Virus record (IMG/VR): IMGVR_UViG_3300036826_000357
Span: 1 to 64,000 of that record
Length of the DNA stretch: 64,000 bases
Source: a virus
Direction: 5' to 3' (one strand)
A model generated the notes under the pieces. That model saw only the letters and a program-made list of their open reading frames with translations. It was not told the DNA's origin and did no database searches. Below, piece after piece: positions 1,996 through 49,431 of this stretch. Position 1 is the stretch's first letter; each line of letters begins with the position of its first letter. The position numbers were made by a program, and so were the translations under genes.

Positions 1996-3972
1996 TCAAC
2001 GCGGGATGCTTCGACGGATAACACTCACCCGCATGGCAGAGCGACGTTGGATCGGCGTATCCGCATGCGTAGCATTGGTCCATGTCTCCGACCGATGTGC
2101 CAGTACATGGATGACACCCGCTGTTGCGTCGGCTACATCCTTTGTCCCAGGAATACGGCGTCCATTCGCATCTACTGTCCATTCAGGGTGATCGATCTTG
2201 CCGGTCTTTTCGTCACGTTCCAGGGCTACAATCTCTTGCATCCATGGCACGTAACGATATGTCTTCAACCGCCGGTCGTAGATAGCCTGTTTCAGATCAC
2301 CGTAGGCAGTGTCTTTCTCCACGGAGACAATGCCCGTCTTAAAGCCGCGCAGCCGGAGGTTTTGGAGTGTAGCCACAGATTGAAACGAATCAGCGGAAAC
2401 CCACTGAATGGGAATCATGATTTCGTCGCGGAGCCGGATCACTAATTCGCCGACATCGGCGAGGATCACTTCGTCACCAGGGGGAGAGATAATACGGAGC
2501 ATGGCTTCGATGACGAATACCGGGAGCCGCTCAACATAGATACGACGGTCATCAATCTCGCGCACTTCGATGGGCCGGCGCTCCGCATCGGCAATCGCCA
2601 CATCCACTGCCGTCCGCTCAATCTCGACCACTCCGGCGGTGTAGCCCATGGCAAAGCCGGTGGCATCGGGACGGCCGAGCCCGAAGTCCAAATGGACGGC
2701 CCGGGGGGATTTGACCATGTGGTCAAAAAACTGCGGGAAGACTCGGAGGCCATCCCGGAGGGTTGTGACTTCGAGGGAGAAGGGATGGCTCCGGTCATCT
2801 TGAAAGCAGTGCTCGATGGCGTTGCGTCGGGCGATGTAGGGCCGGAGCGAGAGCGTCGATCGGCCGGCAATCTCTCGGAGGGCTTGATCGGTGTCCCGCT
2901 CGAAGTCCTTCCGGTACTCCACCGGCACTTCGACCACATCAGTGATGCCAACGTGGTCCGGAACCGGATCCTCGTCCTTAAGCACACGACTCGGCGAGGT
3001 ACCGTGCCCGACGACAACGCGGAACCGGGGGCCGAGCAGCCGATCCTCCTTCGTGCCCCACTGCGGCAGATCAGCCACATAGATCATAGAGACGCCGGTC
3101 TGCACGATATCGGCGTGAGCTTCGGCAATCTTGCGCTCCGTGAAGTCGTCCGGGTAGCGCTTAGACGAGACCATGATGAGCTTACCCGGGAGCCGGCCGA
3201 ATTGCATGAAGCGGGATTTCATGCGGCGGCTGAGACTCTCGTAGTTCGCGACGGCTACATCATGGACTTCGCCACCGTAGGGTCCACCGTAGGGTCGACG
3301 CTTTGAACGGGTCACCACCGGCATAAAGTTTGCCTCGTCCATGATGGCAAACATCACGTTCAAACCGATGGCTGCGGTATCGAGCCCGGAAATGGGACGC
3401 ATGACGATCGATCCGCGCCCCAGTAACAGTTCTGTCCGTCGTGGATCGAGTGGACATGCCTCCCTGAAGTACGGGCTTTTGGCGATGAGCCGGGCGATAT
3501 TGCCGAACAGGACGTTCTGAGCGTGCTCCTTGGATATCGATTGCATGATGAAAACAATCGATGACTCTTCCGCCAGCCCGTACTCCTTCTGCGGATTCAG
3601 CAGGCAACTCACTCGGTACAATTCGTAGGCAAAGAGTAGATCAGCCGTATACGATTTGCCCCAGCCGATTCCGCCCGTCAGCACTACTTCGGTGTAATCC
3701 CCGGTGACAATCTCATGCAGAATCTCAAGTACCTTGGGGAAAACCTGTGGATTACCGTTCACATCATCAGAGAGTCCGAGAAAGTACGGGTCTTTCACGA
3801 ACGTCTCGATGGGAACCGGCTTCCATTTCCACCGGCACAGGTCTTGGAGCGGCGCAGTGTCTCCCTGCAACGCCGCGTTGACGGCTGCGAGATACTCTTC
3901 GCGCTCTATCGAGTTGGGCAGTTGGGCAGCGACATCGATGAGACGCTGAATCGCCGGATCATGGTCCAGCAT
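1996..3972 (-). CDS. terL: Terminase large subunit (packaging ATPase/nuclease)
   Basis: 658 aa. The Walker A motif TGGIGWGKS is at residues 99-107 and a Walker B with catalytic carboxylate, FAIMDEAN, at about 208-215. A RuvC/RNase H-like nuclease domain follows, with HLDFGLGRPDATG (D429), WVSADS (D528) and KDVADA (D612, D615) as likely metal ligands. The protein pumps DNA into the prohead and cuts the concatemer. It overlaps the upstream gene by 14 nt, so translation is probably coupled; no strong ribosome site is visible. Size and domain order fit TerL proteins. Confidence 0.95.
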   Translation of the reverse strand: MLDHDPAIQRLIDVAAQLPNSIEREEYLAAVNAALQGDTAPLQDLCRWKWKPVPIETFVKDPYFLGLSDDVNGNPQVFPKVLEILHEIVTGDYTEVVLTGGIGWGKSYTADLLFAYELYRVSCLLNPQKEYGLAEESSIVFIMQSISKEHAQNVLFGNIARLIAKSPYFREACPLDPRRTELLLGRGSIVMRPISGLDTAAIGLNVMFAIMDEANFMPVVTRSKRRPYGGPYGGEVHDVAVANYESLSRRMKSRFMQFGRLPGKLIMVSSKRYPDDFTERKIAEAHADIVQTGVSMIYVADLPQWGTKEDRLLGPRFRVVVGHGTSPSRVLKDEDPVPDHVGITDVVEVPVEYRKDFERDTDQALREIAGRSTLSLRPYIARRNAIEHCFQDDRSHPFSLEVTTLRDGLRVFPQFFDHMVKSPRAVHLDFGLGRPDATGFAMGYTAGVVEIERTAVDVAIADAERRPIEVREIDDRRIYVERLPVFVIEAMLRIISPPGDEVILADVGELVIRLRDEIMIPIQWVSADSFQSVATLQNLRLRGFKTGIVSVEKDTAYGDLKQAIYDRRLKTYRYVPWMQEIVALERDEKTGKIDHPEWTVDANGRRIPGTKDVADATAGVIHVLAHRSETWTNATHADTPIQRRSAMRVSVIRRSIPR

Positions 3973-19186: not shown

Positions 19187-19586
19187 TCTCCCGCCGCTCC
19201 TCAACCAACTCACCCCAGAACTTGATCTGCTGCTGATCGAGGAGCCGCCCCAAGGCATCCAATTGCAGCACCATGTCCTTCACCGTATCGAGATTGGAAA
19301 AACCGTATGTCAGCAACGCCAGACGGACGTTGCCGAGTCCGTCGAGCGCATCACGATGCACCCGCTCGCGATACTGCTCGACGGTTAAATGGCCCTTGCG
19401 CTGGTTACAGCTTCGACACGCCGCCACCAGGTTTTTGTATACCGACCGGCCATTGGCGACACGAGGCGTCAGGTGATCGAGGGTCAGAATCCGCCGGTCA
19501 TACTCCCGGAGACCACAATACCAACACCTACCGTCACTCTTGCCCCGAACCAGCCGACTCAGCCGCCTCCGCCCCCGGTGACTCAT
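19104..19586 (-). CDS. HNH endonuclease
   Basis: 160 aa. CWYC, then LTLDHLTPRVANG, then YKNLVAACRSCNQRKG give a complete HNH motif with a zinc-binding pair of CxxC. A helical C-terminus follows. It overlaps both neighbours, so it is unlikely to be a recent insertion; it may be a resident nuclease of the recombination block. Confidence 0.9.
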   Translation of the reverse strand: MSHRGRRRLSRLVRGKSDGRCWYCGLREYDRRILTLDHLTPRVANGRSVYKNLVAACRSCNQRKGHLTVEQYRERVHRDALDGLGNVRLALLTYGFSNLDTVKDMVLQLDALGRLLDQQQIKFWGELVEERRENGNGWERGTGIGRARRGSHDGGGSRAT

Positions 19587-20106
19587 GGCTCAAACCCTTC
19601 GGCATCTGCTTCCAGCGGAAATGTATCAGCCGCTGAAATACGATGAGTCGCGGATTCGCCTTCACAGCGGACTGGAGCCGGGCCAAACGAAAGCATTCGA
19701 TAATGGCCTTCGCCTGGTCCTCGGTGTAGAGCCTCCACTTCGCTGCTGTATGGTACGTTGGCTTCGGGAGAATCCCCTTCGCCTCCCACAGACAGAGCGT
19801 TTTTGTGGTTCGCCCCAGTGCAGCGGCTACTTCATTGATAAGGTACACGCGCACAGTCCGCACGACGCCCGTTGCATCATCATAAATCCCGAGCATGCGT
19901 GGCTGTCCCGGTTTCAAACGGATTATTGCAGCTTGCTCCTGCTTCCGTTCATTGTACCAGCGCATCGCACGTCGTTTGACAGCATTACGATACTCCGGAT
20001 CATTCGCGTATTTTTCCTTCCGATACTGGAGGAGATACGGCCGATTGTTCTGGTAATACTGCTTCTGATACCGCTGCTGGTCGGTAAGCTGCGTGGCAAT
20101 CTCCAT
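19534..20106 (-). CDS. MerR-like helix-turn-helix protein
   Basis: 190 aa. The N-terminal 55 residues are a basic, Tyr/Arg/Lys-rich helix, like those attached to phage HNH proteins. Residues about 87-135 form a MerR-type helix-turn-helix (YLINEVAAALGRTTKTLCLW...GILPKPTYH...YTEDQAKAI). No effector domain is present. Probably a small DNA-binding regulator or replication accessory. Confidence 0.8.
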   Translation of the reverse strand: MEIATQLTDQQRYQKQYYQNNRPYLLQYRKEKYANDPEYRNAVKRRAMRWYNERKQEQAAIIRLKPGQPRMLGIYDDATGVVRTVRVYLINEVAAALGRTTKTLCLWEAKGILPKPTYHTAAKWRLYTEDQAKAIIECFRLARLQSAVKANPRLIVFQRLIHFRWKQMPKGLSHESPGAEAAESAGSGQE

Positions 20107-21155: not shown

Positions 21156-21605
21156 TCAGGCGACCGCTGGCTTTTGCTCCGTCGTCTCCGCGAGTGTCTT
21201 TTTCCGGTCGCCGATCTTCAGCGTTGTATCGCGTTTCGTGTGCTCTTGACAGTGCCGATCGTACAACGTCTTCGTCAGCACCGCTTTGGCACGGCCGAGT
21301 GGCACTTCGGCAATGGAAAAGAACACTGCCGAATCGCACGCCTCGTCCTTGTAGAGCGCTTCCGCATCAATGGCATGGAAATGCTCATGTTCAAGGATCG
21401 CGGTATGCTTCTCGCCGAGCACCAGGACATCGGCTCCCTTCTCGGCAAAGAGCAACGGCTCCAACTGCGCTCGCGCCTCGTCGTAGGCTTTCTTCGCGGT
21501 AGACGCCGCAATGCGCAGTGCGCCAGCCCGATCAATCAGGGTGGCAAGCAGCTTGTCGGTGTTTACTCTGGCACGCTTCTTCGATGGTGTATCCTTCCGG
21601 CTCAT
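21156..21605 (-). CDS. Conserved hypothetical helical protein
   Basis: 149 aa from the ATG at 21605 (GGGAGGTAAC upstream; ATGA overlap with the preceding gene). A basic start is followed by helices (AYDEARAQLEPLL) and a strand region. Similar small proteins occur beside phage ssDNA-binding genes; function unknown. Confidence 0.75.
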   Translation of the reverse strand: MSRKDTPSKKRARVNTDKLLATLIDRAGALRIAASTAKKAYDEARAQLEPLLFAEKGADVLVLGEKHTAILEHEHFHAIDAEALYKDEACDSAVFFSIAEVPLGRAKAVLTKTLYDRHCQEHTKRDTTLKIGDRKKTLAETTEQKPAVA

Positions 21606-22063
21606 GTTACCTCCCAGCACTCCAACGGCACGCCCCAGCGTTTGCCGATTCCGGCATCGTACCAATGCCCCGCATCGCGTGCCGTCTGGAACGATGTGCG
21701 GTAGACCCGATTCGCTACTCGGTCGACCATTTCGAGGTACTGAATGTGACGACCCAACGGGCCGCACAACTGCTCCCACAGATCGGCTTGGAAGGTAACC
21801 AGCCGCTCCTTCCAGTAGATGAAATCCTCGGCTTCGCCGCCCCCCTGATAGAGATGAGCACTCGAATCGATGTACCCACATTGCGCCATATGTCGGCTCC
21901 TTGGCTTCCGCGCCTGCACTGGTATCGTGTACCGATGGTCGAGCACCGTGCCGGCTCGTTGTGCGCCCGGGACAGGAACACGGATCGGCGGGATCGGTGC
22001 AGCCGGCGGGATCGGTGCCGGCAGCATCCCCGGGAACACGCCCTGCTCATCGTCGCGCTTCAT
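21602..22063 (-). CDS. Hypothetical protein behind a regulated leader
   Basis: 153 aa from the ATG at 22063. No ribosome site of its own is visible; instead the ATG overlaps the stop of a 10-codon upstream frame (22060-22092), so initiation is probably coupled to it. The protein has a proline-rich start (GMLPAPIPPAAPIPPIRVPV) and a helical, aromatic-rich C-terminus. No family is recognised. Its message starts behind a nested hairpin and an 18-bp palindrome, implying regulation. Confidence 0.7.
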   Translation of the reverse strand: MKRDDEQGVFPGMLPAPIPPAAPIPPIRVPVPGAQRAGTVLDHRYTIPVQARKPRSRHMAQCGYIDSSAHLYQGGGEAEDFIYWKERLVTFQADLWEQLCGPLGRHIQYLEMVDRVANRVYRTSFQTARDAGHWYDAGIGKRWGVPLECWEVT

Positions 22064-22092
22064 AAATTTGACCACGTGGTCAAATCAGCCAT
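22060..22092 (-). CDS. Ten-codon upstream ORF (leader peptide candidate)
   Basis: The frame MADLTTWSNL ends in TGA that overlaps the ATG of the next gene (ATGA). Its possible ribosome site, AAGGGAG at 22104-22110, lies inside the right arm of the nested hairpin, 11 nt from the start. This arrangement would make translation of the main gene depend on opening the hairpin. Inference from layout only. Confidence 0.35.
   Translation of the reverse strand: MADLTTWSNL
22067..22084. repeat. 18-bp palindrome TTTGACCACGTGGTCAAA, copy 1
   Basis: A perfect palindrome with a CACGTG centre, 3 nt before the ATG at 22063. Identical copies are at 38303-38320 and 48160-48177. It probably binds a dimeric protein. 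It also folds into the coding sequence of the leader ORF. Confidence 0.7.
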
Positions 22093-22180
22093 GACGGCTC
22101 AGACTCCCTTTCCTGATCGGCAGACGGCAAAGCCCCCGACCAGGAATCCAAGGGTTAGGAGTCAAAACCGTCATGGCTGA
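22085..22180 (-). promoter_or_regulatory. Nested inverted repeat, structured 5' leader
   Basis: Three stacked stems form one long rod: TCAGCCATGACGG (22085-22097) pairs perfectly with 22168-22180; GACTCC (22102-22107) with 22158-22163; TCCTGATCGG (22111-22120) with 22136-22145, where the single mismatch becomes a G-U pair only in the minus-strand RNA. The wobble fits an RNA read leftward into the gene at 22063. The ribosome-site-like AAGGGAG is inside the stem. It may be a cis-regulatory RNA or a thermosensor. Confidence 0.6.
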
Positions 22181-22189
22181 CTCGACCAA

Positions 22190-22226
22190 AGAAGAAGGCC
22201 CCCACGGGGGATCCATGGGAGCCTTC
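22190..22226 (-). terminator. Rho-independent terminator-like hairpin
   Basis: Read leftward: GAAGGC then CCCA pair with TGGG then GCCTTC (one mismatch), followed by TTCTTT. It lies about 110-150 nt downstream of the promoter at 22344-22372. Confidence 0.5.
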
Positions 22227-22337
22227 TCCGGGTGCGCCCGGTCTCGCGCGAACACTGGACGCGGTTTACCTGTAGGACAGGATCGGCCATCTGAGAGGGG
22301 GATCTCATTGGCAGACAGCCAGCACCACCCCACATCA
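22190..22337 (-). ncRNA. Candidate small RNA between promoter and terminator
   Basis: A strong promoter just after the stop of the 22376 gene and a terminator-like hairpin about 150 nt further define a short transcript with no convincing reading frame. Several small hairpins are predictable (CCTGT/ACAGG, CCGGG/CCCGG, TGGC/GCCA). Alternatively it is the first part of a long leader for the gene at 22063, with the hairpin acting as an attenuator. Confidence 0.35.
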
Positions 22338-22343
22338 CCGCTG

Positions 22344-22372
22344 GGTATAGCCGGTCATTCCCTCTTTGTCAA
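22344..22372 (-). promoter_or_regulatory. Promoter of the TTGACAAAR family
   Basis: -35 TTGACA at 22367-22372, 17-bp spacer, -10 TATACC at 22344-22349. It starts 4 bp before the stop codon of the upstream gene and points leftward into 22064-22343. Confidence 0.65.
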
Positions 22373-26344: not shown

Positions 26345-26775
26345 CAGTCGTACCCGAGAATCGCATTTAATGCGGCCACCGCTTCCGCCGCCTTCCAGCC
26401 ACAGTCGAGCTTGTGCTTCACAGCGACGAGTTGGGCGATGTCACACGCCTTCTCGTAGGTGTCGTTCTCCATGGCAATCTCGCTTCCAGCCACGAGCGCG
26501 TCCTGCATGTCGCACACGTCCCATCGCCAGGAGCCTTCCACGGGTCGGCCGACCTTCACGGCATGATCGCGCATCCGCGCCCATTCGAGAATCTCGTACC
26601 GGGTCCGTTCGAGCACGTTCCGCTCAAGCTCCCGGTAGACAACGGTCTCCCGCCAGATCCGATCGATCGTCAGGAACAACGACCGTTCGAGCCAGGAACA
26701 CTCATCCCACCAGCGCAGCCGCGCTTCCGCTAACTGCGTATCGGTCAATTCCCGGGGCGGATCGTGAGTGTCCAT
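26344..26775 (-). CDS. Hypothetical helical protein
   Basis: 143 aa from the ATG at 26775 (TGATG overlap). Helical throughout, Trp- and Glu-rich (RWWDECSWLERSLFLTIDRI). Part of a coupled run of small genes; no family. Confidence 0.7.
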   Translation of the reverse strand: MDTHDPPRELTDTQLAEARLRWWDECSWLERSLFLTIDRIWRETVVYRELERNVLERTRYEILEWARMRDHAVKVGRPVEGSWRWDVCDMQDALVAGSEIAMENDTYEKACDIAQLVAVKHKLDCGWKAAEAVAALNAILGYD

Positions 26776-27059
26776 CAGACTTCGTAGCCATGGAGCCGGC
26801 AATACGCACGCCAGACTTCCTGCTGCTCCACGGTGGACGGGGCCTCGAACTGCTGCTCACACGCGTTGTACCCGGCAACGAACCAGGGATGCCACCACCC
26901 ACAGGGATAGAAGCCGGGATCGGCTGCCTGCGCGTAGGATTCCCCGAGCGCCCGGATGAGATACGGCTCGACGTGACTCACATACGGCGGTTCCCACTCA
27001 CCCATCGACTCGTCCGGCATCGAGTCGCATAGCTCCGGCGGTGTCCATTCAGGACTCAT
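26775..27059 (-). CDS. Hypothetical protein with GWWHPWFVAG block, paralogue A
   Basis: 94 aa. Residues about 46-62 read ADPGFYPCGWWHPWFVAG, shared almost exactly with the next gene upstream (27123-27338). The rest of the two proteins differs. The block is aromatic with one Cys and one His, perhaps a binding or metal motif. AGGAAGGG precedes the ATG, and a TTGACAAAG element sits at 27076-27081 but without a proper -10. Confidence 0.75.
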   Translation of the reverse strand: MSPEWTPPELCDSMPDESMGEWEPPYVSHVEPYLIRALGESYAQAADPGFYPCGWWHPWFVAGYNACEQQFEAPSTVEQQEVWRAYCRLHGYEV

Positions 27060-27122
27060 CGGTTCCCTTCCTCTTTGTCAACTTTTGACCACGGGGTCAA
27101 CTGCCCACCCTGACGCAAAGCG

Positions 27123-33015: not shown

Positions 33016-33040
33016 CGAGTCATTACTTCCTTGTGTTGAG

Positions 33041-33113
33041 AGCCGGCTGGCGGAATCGAACCGCCGACTTGCTGATTACGAATCAGCTACTCTGCCGTCT
33101 GAGTTAAGCCGGC
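33041..33113 (-). tRNA. tRNA-Thr, anticodon CGU
   Basis: A complete 73-nt cloverleaf: 7-bp acceptor (GCCGGCT/AGCCGGC), D arm ACTC/GAGT with GG in its loop, anticodon stem GCTGA/TCAGC with loop TTCGTAA, a 5-nt variable region, and T arm GGCGG/CCGCC with TTCGATT. Anticodon CGT reads the codon ACG. CCA is not encoded. Its 5' end overlaps the last 10 nt of the upstream protein gene, including the TAA stop. Confidence 0.95.
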
Positions 33114-34201: not shown

Positions 34202-35107
34202 TTACTCCGTCAGCGTGATGCCTGCCTTCCCCGCCTTCACACTGGCCTCGAACCGAGCCTGCCAGTCGAGAGTCGACCGCTCGACTCGCTTGAGTGCCCG
34301 CAGCGCTTCCTCGAACAGGAGCCGCCCGATGCCCTCATTCAGTTCTCCGTCCTCCACCGCTTCGATCACCTTCTTGAAGCGCTGGACGTTCTTCTGCGTC
34401 AGGACGCGGCACTGCATCGCCGTATCCTTCTTCCAGAACGTGAACTTCGTTTCGGCAGACTTGTCTGTCTTCTTGCCACGAAGCTCGTCACGGAGTGTCT
34501 GCTCCTTGACGGTGAACTCCCGCGCCGCGCGCGGCACGGTGTACTTGTGATCCGTCACCGCCAGGACGGCCTTGCGGAGCCGAACCTTTGCCTCCTTCGA
34601 GGCGATGTCGTTCAGGTACCGGCGCACGATCGGACGCGCCAGAATCATCGATCCGAACAGATCCTTCTGATCGAGCAGGTCCATGATGCGCTTCGGGGTC
34701 AGCCCCTGCGCCTGGAGGAGCCGGATAGTGTGCTCGAAATCGTCGCTGGTGGGCGGCAGTGCCCCACCCGTGTTGGCGCGGAGCGCGTACACGATCATGT
34801 CTTCGGTGGAATCGAATTCCTTGACGATGCACTCGGTCTCGATGTACTGCCCCTTGTGCAGATCGGCGAGCACTTCCAGCCCGCCCTTGCGGTGCCGGCC
34901 ATCCACGGTCTCGAAGTGAATTCCGTCCTCGTCCTCGACTTCTGCAACTTCGATCGGCGGGACGGGGATCCCGTTCTCGTACAGTTCTGCGAACATCTGC
35001 ATGCGGTCGTCGTCAGGCTTCACCCGCACGTAGAATGTCGTACGCAGATCAGCGACCTTGACGGTAACATGCCGATCCGCAGACCGCTTCTTGGCTGCTT
35101 CGGCCAT
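34202..35107 (-). CDS. ParB-like nuclease-domain protein
   Basis: 301 aa from the ATG at 35107 (AGAGGA upstream); an ATG at 35134 would add nine residues. The ParB/Srx fold is indicated by VPPIEVAEVEDEDGIHFETV followed by DGRHRKGGLEVL, the region that in chromosomal ParB proteins binds CTP. A central helix-turn-helix (DDFEHTIRLLQAQGLTPKRI) and helical C-terminus follow. Phage ParB-like proteins act in transcription control, segregation or as nucleases. It has its own promoter (35163-35190). Confidence 0.85.
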   Translation of the reverse strand: MAEAAKKRSADRHVTVKVADLRTTFYVRVKPDDDRMQMFAELYENGIPVPPIEVAEVEDEDGIHFETVDGRHRKGGLEVLADLHKGQYIETECIVKEFDSTEDMIVYALRANTGGALPPTSDDFEHTIRLLQAQGLTPKRIMDLLDQKDLFGSMILARPIVRRYLNDIASKEAKVRLRKAVLAVTDHKYTVPRAAREFTVKEQTLRDELRGKKTDKSAETKFTFWKKDTAMQCRVLTQKNVQRFKKVIEAVEDGELNEGIGRLLFEEALRALKRVERSTLDWQARFEASVKAGKAGITLTE

Positions 35108-35162
35108 AAATCTATCCTCTACTTTCTGTCCCATTTGGTTTTTGGTTTTTGGGGACGGGTCC

Positions 35163-35190
35163 AGAGTAGTCACCCTTTCCCTTTTGTCAA
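35163..35190 (-). promoter_or_regulatory. Promoter of the TTGACAAAR family for the ParB-like gene
   Basis: -35 TTGACA at 35185-35190 (TTGACAAAA), 16-bp spacer, -10 TACTCT at 35163-35168. It lies at the 3' end of the preceding small gene. Confidence 0.5.
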
Positions 35191-38302: not shown

Positions 38303-38320
38303 TTTGACCACGTGGTCAAA
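38303..38320. repeat. 18-bp palindrome TTTGACCACGTGGTCAAA, copy 2
   Basis: Exact copy of 22067-22084. It includes the TGA stop of the 38316-38546 gene and precedes the gap 38134-38302, which is otherwise empty except for a GGAATCCCC/GGGGATCCC imperfect hairpin near 38175-38210. Confidence 0.7.
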
Positions 38321-38546
38321 TGCCTGTCGCGATCCCTGCCGCGCGCAGAAAGCCTGCCGCTAGCTGCCGGCAATGCTCCTTGGACAACGGACTCGTTGCC
38401 AGCCGCCGCGTCGGTAAGCCGGCTCCGCGTTGCACGATCACCAGCCGCGCCGGGAACACGCCATCCGGGGCGATGATTTCCACCTGCCGGCCATCCAGAT
38501 CGGTCAAGATCGTGATGTAGGTGTCGCCCGTCAGTGGATCGTTCAA
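38316..38546 (-). CDS. Small hypothetical protein
   Basis: 76 aa from a TTG with GGAGGCAGCG upstream. Strand-rich first half (TYITILTDLDGRQVEIIAPDG), helical end. It is first behind the promoter at 38576-38604. Function unknown. Confidence 0.65.
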   Translation of the reverse strand: MNDPLTGDTYITILTDLDGRQVEIIAPDGVFPARLVIVQRGAGLPTRRLATSPLSKEHCRQLAAGFLRAAGIATGI

Positions 38547-48119: not shown

Positions 48120-48162
48120 GGGCGGGTCAGCCACCAAGTGTGGCCCCGCCCAGCCTCTTTTT
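48120..48162 (+). terminator. Rho-independent terminator of the rightward cluster
   Basis: GGGCGGG pairs with CCCGCCC around an inner CCAC/GTGG hairpin, followed by CTCTTTTT. It ends the 42-48 kb transcript. Confidence 0.8.
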
Positions 48163-48177
48163 GACCACGTGGTCAAA
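48160..48177. repeat. 18-bp palindrome TTTGACCACGTGGTCAAA, copy 3
   Basis: Exact copy of the palindromes at 22067 and 38303, overlapping the T-run of the terminator and the TGA stop of the collagen-like gene. Confidence 0.7.
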
Positions 48178-48967
48178 TCGCGCAGCGCACGATCGCGATC
48201 AGCGTCGCTTGACTGACCTGCGCCGTCGCCGTCACTTCGCTCGTCCAGCCAGTCGCGCCATCCGGTGCCGAGTTACTCAGCAGCAGCTTTTTCTCGTCCT
48301 GCGGTTTCGCCGTGACAACCATGAAGCCGCCACTGACGACCTGCTCGCCTGCGAGACAGACCGCCGTCGCTGTCAGGGACTCGCCACCCTTGATCGATGT
48401 CCCCTCTGCACTCGCCGTCCGCGTCACCAGAGTGAGACTGCCGCCACCACTCCCGGTCGGTCCGGTCGCACCTGTTGCGCCGGTCGCCCCGGTCGGACCC
48501 CTGGCCCCGGTCGGCCCCATCACTCCCGCCGGCCCGGTCGGTCCCAGAGCCCCGGTTGCCCCGGCCGTCCCGGGCAGTCCCATTGGTCCGGCCGGTCCCG
48601 GCGATCCTTGAGCACCCGGCGTTCCTGGCAGTCCCGGAGCACCTGTCGGTCCCGGCATCCCCGCCGCACCGTCTACCCCGGTCGCCCCGGTCGCTCCGGT
48701 TAGCCCAGTCGGCCCGGTCGGTCCCGGCAGACCATCCCAGCCCATGGTTCCCGGTGGCCCGGGTGGCCCAGTCGGTCCAGGTGATCCCGGTGGTCCCGGT
48801 GGTCCAGTCGGTCCCGGTGGTCCAGGCTCGTTGAGACCGCCAGCCGACTTCTCCCCCTTGCGACATTCCTCCGCCCGGAGAGTCACCAGGCCATTTTTCT
48901 TCTGGCAGAAAACTGCCGCATCAGCCTGAGTCAGCGCGAGCAGCACCAGAAACGCAATCACCGCCAT
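48173..48967 (-). CDS. Secreted collagen-like protein
   Basis: 264 aa from the ATG at 48967. A signal peptide ([16 protein letters not shown]) leads to a short Cys pair domain ([15 protein letters not shown]), then about 130 residues of Gly-x-y triplets ([20 protein letters not shown]), then a strand-rich C-terminal domain of about 85 residues with two Cys. Collagen-like segments are common in phage fibres, where they trimerise, but a Sec signal on such a protein is unusual. The stop overlaps palindrome copy 3. Confidence 0.9.
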
Positions 48968-49431
48968 TTGAGCGCCGCCGGATAACTCGTTGTTGTCCAC
49001 CGCGACCGACTCGGTTTTCCCGGTCGCCACCGACGCAAATACTGCCGCCAGGCTTCCTCTTCATCCCCAATCTCCGGCAACGGCTTCTTCTCCAACCACA
49101 GCACCGAGCGCGCCATGATGCAGGCTAGCGTATCGGCACCCTGCCCAATGGCAATCGCCGTCCGCGCACGACTGATCGGGAAATTCAGTGCCTGTGCCGC
49201 CTTCCGGAACGGCGCTAGCTCTGGCCGCATCTCGAATTCCGCGCAGCCACCAGCTACCTCGAACTGCCACAGACCCCGTGCCGGCCCACCCGATTGTGTT
49301 CGATGCGAGAAATGCGATTCCTGCATCCCAATCGCAATTAACATCACCACCGCTTCGAGGGAGTCATAGGGTTCCCCGAGCCATTTCAGCGGCGGCTTGA
49401 TAATCAGGTCCGAGGCAATCTCAGGAGTCAC
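48958..49431 (-). CDS. Lysozyme/lytic transglycosylase-like protein
   Basis: 157 aa from a [22 protein letters not shown] followed by ARGLWQFE resembles the catalytic region of lysozyme-fold transglycosylases, where the Glu in QES is catalytic and the GLWQFE segment lines the cleft. The short size is typical of a virion-associated or lysis enzyme. No signal peptide or membrane anchor. It would cut peptidoglycan during entry or release. Confidence 0.75.

What the first reader, a model, noticed from the sequence alone, without database searches (positions are those of the whole stretch)
22064..22180. Nested hairpin, mini-ORF and palindrome stacked before one gene
Three concentric stems (22085-22180) hide a ribosome-site-like sequence; right after comes a 10-codon ORF whose stop overlaps the next start, and within it the 18-bp palindrome. 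A mismatch becomes G-U only in minus-strand RNA, pointing to an RNA element. This looks like a translation-level switch for the gene at 21602-22063.
Basis: partly seen in the sequence, partly recalled or inferred. Interest (0 to 1): 0.75.

Follow-up and report, generated by a model that had tools for sequence, protein, structure and literature searches.

The report
Phage hairpin beside dispersed palindromic DNA site
Upstream of a phage recombination operon lies an unusually strong hairpin whose job is unknown, and next to it one of seven scattered copies of a palindrome that is probably a protein-binding DNA site and not part of an RNA switch.

Summary
The sequence described is there. The minus-strand hairpin (22077-22188) lies in the most stable of 8,466 folded 120-nt windows of the 85-kb virus record and beats 200 shuffles (z -8.0). 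But the stack is not one device. The 18-bp palindrome (22067-22084) occurs 7 times in the record (5 exact, 2 variants); none of the other six copies has a neighbouring fold as extreme. It is best read as a dispersed double-stranded DNA site. Of 17 other phages counted, 10 carry 9-47 copies of a differently spelled palindrome, TGCAA-N4-TTGCA; T7, lambda and this record have none. An eleventh has 16 copies of a related word. Which protein binds is unproven; a ParB-like protein is a candidate with clear exceptions. The stop-start overlap of the mini-ORF is ordinary (139 of 448 ATGA sites), and ATG 21889, with a strong ribosome site, is the likelier gene start. The palindrome's own hairpin loses to the long stem by about 10 kcal/mol. 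No close homologue was found, so covariation could not be tested. The hairpin's role stays open: RNA leader or processing element most likely, translation switch possible but not supported.

The parts
22344..22372 (-). promoter-like site TTGACA-17-TATACC, one of a set of TTGACAAAG sites in the record
   Evidence: 10 exact TTGACAAAG in the record, 8 of them not inside a predicted gene; spacing and -10 read by eye; not reported by the stricter scan; activity inferred
22191..22229 (-). terminator-like stem (17 bp) followed by UUU; most of the U-rich run UUCUUC is itself in the stem, so its strength as a terminator is doubtful
   Evidence: a smaller inner stem, where 2 sites were found against 2.4 in shuffles; sub-threshold Rfam match ctRNA_p42d 25.2 bits against a cut-off of 50
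22077..22188 (-). three-tier long hairpin, in the most stable 120-nt window of the record
22067..22084 (.). 18-bp palindrome TTTGACCACGTGGTCAAA, member of a dispersed site family (two further exact copies lie outside the window at record positions 74979 and 78479)
22060..22092 (-). 10-codon mini-ORF MADLTTWSNL, stop overlapping ATG 22063; probably incidental
21602..22063 (-). downstream gene of unknown function; ATG 21889 (with AAGGAG) is the likelier start
   Evidence: no family or relative found
2710..2727 (.). palindrome copy, 1 mismatch, inside the large terminase gene
27084..27101 (.). palindrome copy, 2 mismatches, 24 bp before the start of predicted gene 26775-27059
38303..38320 (.). 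palindrome copy, exact, overlapping the 3' end of predicted gene 38316-38546
48160..48177 (.). palindrome copy, exact, overlapping the 3' end of predicted gene 48173-49030
34202..35173 (-). ParB-like protein with a weak HTH match, one candidate binder of the palindrome
   Evidence: phrog_1033, E 8.5e-8; HTH_23, E 8.4e-4, below the cut-off; binding not shown

Best explanation
Two independent elements share one intergenic region (312 bp up to ATG 22063) at the head of the phage's ssDNA-binding/recombination genes. (1) The palindrome is one of seven dispersed double-stranded DNA sites, probably bound by a phage-encoded DNA-binding protein that marks, organises or silences the phage genome, as ParB, Noc or KorB do with their palindromes. 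Shown: dispersion, no enrichment of the word in the genomes and viral contigs scanned, and dispersed palindromes of the same style in related phages. Inferred: that a protein binds it, and which one. (2) The long hairpin is a separate element that most likely acts when transcribed on the minus strand, as a structured leader or processing site (for example an RNase III-type cut or a 5'-end stabiliser) for the genes downstream. Shown: exceptional stability, greater on the minus strand. Inferred: transcription and function.
For: Palindrome: 7 copies in the 85-kb record; 5 in the window against 0.02 in shuffles at up to 3 mismatches. Flanking folds at the seven sites, 125 nt each way on both strands: z -9.5 and -6.3 at 22067; of the other six sites only 2710 (z -4.8 and -4.0) and 48160 (-2.9, -2.5) go below -2, so the strong hairpin does not travel with the site. 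Five exact hits in scattered taxa among the genomes of 84,980 species (about 4 expected by my own arithmetic from 257 billion bases) and one IMG/VR contig (base total not stated). Related phages carry dispersed palindromes of like size: DLP5, RcZahn, JP1, PG28, RcTiptonus, HJ05, PA_L9, L338C, RHph_Y1_11, V-YDF132, CAU_VPP01. The commonest exact palindromic word reaches 2 copies in T7 and in lambda, 2 in five mononucleotide shuffles of the window, and 2-4 in the six site-poor phages. The record encodes a ParB-like protein. Hairpin; promoter-like site.
Against: No binding data. The palindrome shares only 4 of 8 half-site positions with consensus parS (sequence given). ParB and palindromes do not match perfectly: KellEzio, DanielleIgnace and KarBoss have the relatives' terminase-linked ParB but 0, 0 and 2 TGCAA-N4-TTGCA sites and no other word above 3 copies, and CAU_VPP01 has 16 sites without that ParB. 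Fisher p is 0.04 with HJ05 counted as having the ParB and 0.07 otherwise; the phages are not independent, and two of those counted as having it (PA_L9, L338C) rest on short weak matches (E about 5e-7). The record lacks that ParB, so choosing its own 34202-35173 protein is a guess. The site spelling differs between this record and its relatives. The 2710 copy also lies beside a fairly strong fold. For the hairpin, the terminator-like stem upstream means that it may be transcribed only on read-through.
Confidence: 0.55

Rival explanations
1. Translation switch: the long hairpin hides the ribosome site of the mini-ORF, and translation of the mini-ORF, coupled by its ATGA overlap, turns on the gene starting at 22063.
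For: The mini-ORF has a ribosome-site-like GGGAG (duplex -7.9) that lies in the stem; G-U pairs favour the minus strand (read from the arms).
Against: ATG 22063 has almost no ribosome site, ATG 21889 a strong one; GGGAG stands 11 nt before the mini-ORF start, which is long; the overlap is ordinary; no alternative fold in balance.
Confidence: 0.12
2. Attenuator: transcripts from the 22372 promoter stop at the 22191-22229 stem unless read-through is allowed, and the long hairpin or a protein on the palindrome adjusts read-through into the recombination genes.
For: Promoter-like site, then a 17-bp stem, then the hairpin, then the genes.
Against: The promoter-like site was not reported by the stricter scan; only UUU follows the stem outside it; terminator-like sites in this region are no commoner than in shuffles (2 against 2.4); antiterminator pairing was not tested by any tool; the stem may simply end the upstream gene.
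Confidence: 0.2
3. The hairpin acts as DNA: a replication origin, a cruciform, or the remnant of a small inverted-repeat insertion.
For: DNA folding is also extreme (z -6.1 and -4.4); it sits near ssDNA-binding and RecA-like genes; the arms begin TG and end CA.
Against: No GC-skew switch near 22 kb; one search shows no repeat family clustered here among the 20 it lists of at least 60; no flanking target duplication seen by eye; no second copy of the hairpin in the record.
Confidence: 0.15

Closest known systems
Cluster O mycobacteriophage 17-bp dyad repeat (PMC4351075, passages read)
   Same: Dispersed dyad-symmetric site throughout a phage genome, part between genes or near gene starts, part inside genes, no meaningful orientation; the passages seen name no binder.
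   Different: 34 copies of TGTTCGG-N3-CCGAACA in Corndog against 7 copies of TTTGACCACGTGGTCAAA; unrelated spelling.
KorB operators of plasmid RK2 (PMC11790492, passages read)
   Same: A ParB-like CTPase clamp loads at 16-bp operators and silences promoters near and far.
   Different: The operator's spelling and palindromic form are recalled, not seen in the passages, and differ from this word; no KorA partner was looked for; binding and silencing untested here.
parS and Noc-binding sites (PMC7383237, passages read)
   Same: 16-bp palindromes; parS consensus TGTTTCAC-GTGAAACA also has a CACGTG core. That Noc sites are spread over the chromosome is recalled.
   Different: Half-sites match parS at 4 of 8 positions; no ParA was looked for by a dedicated search; sites here are not clustered.
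Mycobacteriophage stoperators (PMC9283540, search listing with start of abstract only)
   Same: Repressor sites distributed across a phage genome.
   Different: By its title that repressor is monomeric and its site asymmetric; here the sites are palindromes.

Membership tests
Dispersed palindromic site families of phages (Cluster O type) | Several near-identical dyad-symmetric copies across one phage genome | tested here: met
   7 copies, 5 exact
Dispersed palindromic site families of phages (Cluster O type) | Copies both between and inside genes | tested here: met
   3 of 7 between predicted genes, 2 of 7 overlapping a gene's 3' end, 2 of 7 inside a predicted gene (gene set from a home-made predictor)
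TGCAA-N4-TTGCA family of the related phages | Half-site TGCAA | tested here: not met
   0 copies in the record; the record has TTGACC-N4-GGTCAA 7 times instead
parS / ParABS partition site | Match to the parS consensus | tested here: not met
   4 of 8 half-site positions shared with the consensus given
parS / ParABS partition site | ParB-type protein encoded | tested here: inconclusive
   34202-35173 matches phrog_1033 'ParB-like partition protein', E 8.5e-8; no Pfam ParB match, no NCBIfam match, no solved-structure relative; structure model unusable, pLDDT 42.6
parS / ParABS partition site | ParB binds the site | not testable with these tools
   needs purified protein
Known RNA families (Rfam 15) | Match at gathering score in the hairpin region | tested here: not met
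   the only gathering-score match in the window is a tRNA at 33041-33113; only sub-threshold matches
Translation-switch leader | Conserved or covarying structure across homologues | not tested
   no close homologue found

The most novel reading that the evidence does not exclude
A group of roughly 80-110-kb phages, including DLP5, which is reported to persist as a phagemid, each carries a genome-wide grid of one palindromic word (7 to 47 copies), more evenly spaced than chance in two of six tested, read by a phage protein for genome partition, condensation or silencing; the present phage has re-spelled the whole grid, and its hairpin-palindrome region is one node that also controls the recombination genes.
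Probability: 0.3. Interest if true: 0.72.

Novelty: new member of a known kind. Interest (0 to 1): 0.42.

Why it matters
It separates a striking but isolated hairpin from a more general feature: dispersed palindromes of one style in phages of Vibrio, Stenotrophomonas, Rhodobacter, Agrobacterium, Rhizobium, Pseudomonas and Aeromonas. If one class of phage protein reads them, how such large phages organise, silence or partition their genomes becomes directly testable in cultured phages such as DLP5 and JP1.

Tried and rejected
Translation switch: rejected as the leading reading (start codon, coding score, mini-ORF chance, energetics). Host operator: unlikely, the word is near chance level in the genomes of 84,980 species, though this phage's host is unknown and may not be among them. 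Known RNA family: none at threshold. Replication origin from skew: no signal. Covariation: not possible. DNA searches of the hairpin region gave only short matches at E 0.5 or worse.

ParB as binder: kept only as a candidate. Among plus-strand ORFs of DLP5 the terminase-linked ParB ranks first by a score of my own (5 of 7 site-rich genomes, DLP5 itself included, and 1 of 3 site-poor ones); among those of PG28 its ParB also ranks first (4 of 7 and 1 of 3). But KarBoss has it at 40-46% identity to DLP5 and RcZahn with 2 sites, and CAU_VPP01 has 16 GCAATTAATTGC without it. A second ParB-domain protein, beside the portal gene, is present in site-poor Ares1, D4 and KarBoss as well, and this record has a weak match to part of it at 83902-84201 (E 1e-5 to 6e-5); it does not discriminate. 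MerR-like protein 19534-20106: matched in PG28 and DLP5 but also in site-poor Ares1. Structure model of the ParB-like protein: pLDDT 42.6, not used. Even spacing of sites: DLP5 and JP1, 0 of 5000 random sets as regular; not seen in this record, RcZahn, PG28 or RcTiptonus.

Limits of counts: gene positions come from a home-made predictor, whose coding model was also trained on the genes used as the yardstick. HJ05 was read for its first 50 kb and whole; RcZahn for 99,999 of 101,599 bases; Ares1 80,000 of 80,500, D4 80,000 of 82,960, DanielleIgnace 60,000 of 61,275 and Genie2 120,000 of 131,333 bases. The table of 19 phages behind the Fisher values was put together by me and leaves out this record; HJ05's ParB match is tblastn E 7e-5 but absent; Genie2 was counted as lacking ParB despite a match at E 0.003. 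The relatives were chosen by me from hit lists, not at random.

Full report
What was checked. On the minus strand the region 22040-22200 folds to -86.4 kcal/mol, z -8.0, with 0 of 200 shuffles as good; the plus strand gives -62.2, z -4.8. In a scan of 8,466 windows of 120 nt (step 20, both strands, three pieces of the 85-kb record) the window 22081-22200 minus came first at -69.8 kcal/mol, and its middle is in no predicted gene. The region also folds strongly as DNA (z -6.1 minus, -4.4 plus).

Strand preference. The two 31-nt arms found differ at five places; read by eye, four become G-U in minus-strand RNA, one is U-U, and none is G-U in plus-strand RNA; the inner arms add one more for the minus strand. 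Five to none has a two-sided sign-test value of 0.0625. C-to-T change on the minus strand alone would give the same pattern, and GC skew on the plus strand is negative in nearly all windows of the profile, so this does not settle selection on RNA.

The palindrome is something else. TTTGACCACGTGGTCAAA occurs at 22067, 38303, 48160, 74979 and 78479 exactly, at 2710 with one change and at 27084 with two. Shuffles of the window give 0.02 matches on average at up to three mismatches against 5 found. The strong fold does not travel with the site: folding 125 nt on each side and strand gives z -9.5 (minus) and -6.3 (plus) at 22067, -4.8 and -4.0 at 2710 (inside the terminase gene), -2.9 and -2.5 at 48160, and nothing below -2 at the other four (60 shuffles each). 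In the minus-strand folds the palindrome pairs with itself at four of the other six sites (2710, 38303, 48160, 74979) and with its surroundings at 27084 and 78479. Three of seven sites lie between predicted genes, two overlap a gene's 3' end, two lie inside predicted genes. The word is near chance level elsewhere: 5 scattered genomes among 84,980 species (about 4 expected by my arithmetic) and 1 contig in IMG/VR. It is therefore best read as a phage-specific DNA site. In RNA, forcing its own hairpin costs 10.3 kcal/mol of ensemble energy, and in folds of growing prefixes the long stem is complete before the palindrome's second half is made.

The gene start. ATG 22063 has almost no ribosome site (-2.2 kcal/mol) while ATG 21889 has AAGGAG (-7.7; the median of 45 minus-strand genes is -5.9). 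Codons 22063-21890 score -0.06 per codon, below the 10th percentile of true N-termini (0.25, genes that also trained the model) but above the 95th of wrong frames (-0.16), so the stretch is ambiguous. The mini-ORF's stop-start overlap is ordinary: 139 of 448 ATGA sites in the window have an in-frame ATG upstream before a stop.

Surroundings. The gene at 21602 leads a minus-strand run with an ssDNA-binding protein (matches to phage proteins annotated as gp32-like), a MerR-like protein and a RecA/UvsX-like recombinase and an exonuclease. Upstream, TTGACA-17-TATACC at 22372-22344 belongs to a set of TTGACAAAG sites, 10 exact copies in the record of which 8 are not inside a predicted gene; the stricter promoter scan did not report it. 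Between it and the hairpin is a 17-bp stem followed by UUU. So the hairpin may be transcribed from 22372 only if this stem is read through.

Related phages. By capsid protein the nearest named phages are Stenotrophomonas DLP5 (55%) and Rhodobacter RcZahn (53%). DLP5 is reported to exist as a phagemid (PMC5834331, passages). The five relatives first read all have a dispersed palindrome: counting TGCAA-N4-TTGCA, DLP5 31, RcZahn 9 (in 99,999 bases), JP1 33, PG28 10, RcTiptonus 27. Whole-record counts over 20 records gave 9 or more in 10 (those five plus HJ05 16, PA_L9 30, L338C 47, RHph_Y1_11 15, V-YDF132 25), 2 in CAU_VPP01 and in KarBoss, and 0 in this record, KellEzio, DanielleIgnace, Ares1, Genie2, D4, T7 and lambda. 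CAU_VPP01 has 16 copies of the closely related GCAATTAATTGC; the other six phages of that call reach 2-4 copies of any one word. This record has 0 of TGCAA-N4-TTGCA and 7 of TTGACC-N4-GGTCAA; the five relatives have 0 of the latter. In DLP5 and JP1 the sites are more evenly spaced than in any of 5000 random sets; in the other four genomes tested, this record included, they are not.

Who reads the sites. This record encodes a ParB-like protein at 34202-35173 (phrog_1033, E 8.5e-8; weak HTH), with no solved-structure relative and no usable model. The relatives have another ParB-like protein, one gene before the terminase in the five annotated ones, for which this record has no match (one doubtful match at E 0.06). 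Its presence fits the sites in part: in my table 10 of 11 site-rich phages have it if the weak HJ05 match is counted, and so do 3 of 8 site-poor ones; Fisher p 0.04 with HJ05 counted, 0.07 without, and the phages are not independent. KarBoss (ParB at 40-46% identity to DLP5 and RcZahn, 2 sites) and CAU_VPP01 (sites, no such ParB) are direct exceptions. ParB is the best-ranked but unproven candidate.

In print. Cluster O mycobacteriophages have a 17-bp dyad repeat, 34 times in Corndog (PMC4351075, passages), the closest described pattern I found. RK2 KorB shows how a ParB-type clamp can silence from operators near and far (PMC11790492, passages). A survey reports ParB-fold proteins in phages and other mobile elements (PMC12704722, passages). 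The DLP3 paper has no hit for 'palindrom' (PMC7326821, passages) and the Rhodobacter phage paper none for 'inverted' (PMC8601537, passages). Two text searches for palindrome words found one paper each, both on other subjects by title; the words of L338C, HJ05 and the full 18-base word were not searched. Beyond these searches I cannot say that the sites are undescribed.

Verdict. The palindrome is a member of a dispersed site family, a new member of a known kind. The hairpin is real and exceptional, and its function is open, with an RNA leader or processing role most likely and a translation switch not supported.

Noticed in passing
DLP5 (MG189906), about 95961-96080; L019 45961-46080: An inverted repeat that folds as a 54-bp stem with a 4-nt loop (-115 kcal/mol), inside an annotated hypothetical gene; could be real or an assembly artefact.
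   Followed up: no
window 22372, 23376, 41159, 41728, 41959 (minus), 42247 (plus): TTGACAAAG sites outside predicted genes followed 16-17 nt later by a -10-like hexamer (by eye): a likely set of promoters of this phage; 41959 and 42247 form a divergent pair.
   Followed up: partly
window 22191-22229 minus: Terminator-like stem about 110 nt downstream of the start inferred for the 22372 promoter-like site; the pair could also mark a small RNA of about 145 nt. Weak Rfam resemblance to ctRNA_p42d (25.2 bits, cut-off 50).
   Followed up: partly
JP1 PQ741606.1 (L023, L024): 33 copies of TGCAA-N4-TTGCA, 23 of them TTGCAAACGTTTGCAA, a number of these just after a stop or about 15 bp before a start.
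   Followed up: partly
Rhizobium phage L338C, NC_023502.1: 47 copies of TGCAA-N4-TTGCA, the richest genome seen; those listed are of the form TGCAAC-NN-GTTGCA (listing cut).
   Followed up: no
window 48459-48811: GC-rich repeats in steps of 9 nt inside predicted gene 48173-49030; 'collagen-like' is my own label, not from a call.
   Followed up: no
L011 3902-4201 (record 83902-84201), predicted gene 83911-84999: Weak match (E 1e-5 to 6e-5) to the middle of the portal-adjacent ParB-domain proteins of DLP5 and PG28.
   Followed up: no
window 2710-2834: The palindrome copy inside the terminase gene lies beside a second fairly strong fold (z -4.8 plus, -4.0 minus).
   Followed up: no
window 33040-33113 minus: One tRNA-Thr (CGT) gene.
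   Followed up: no
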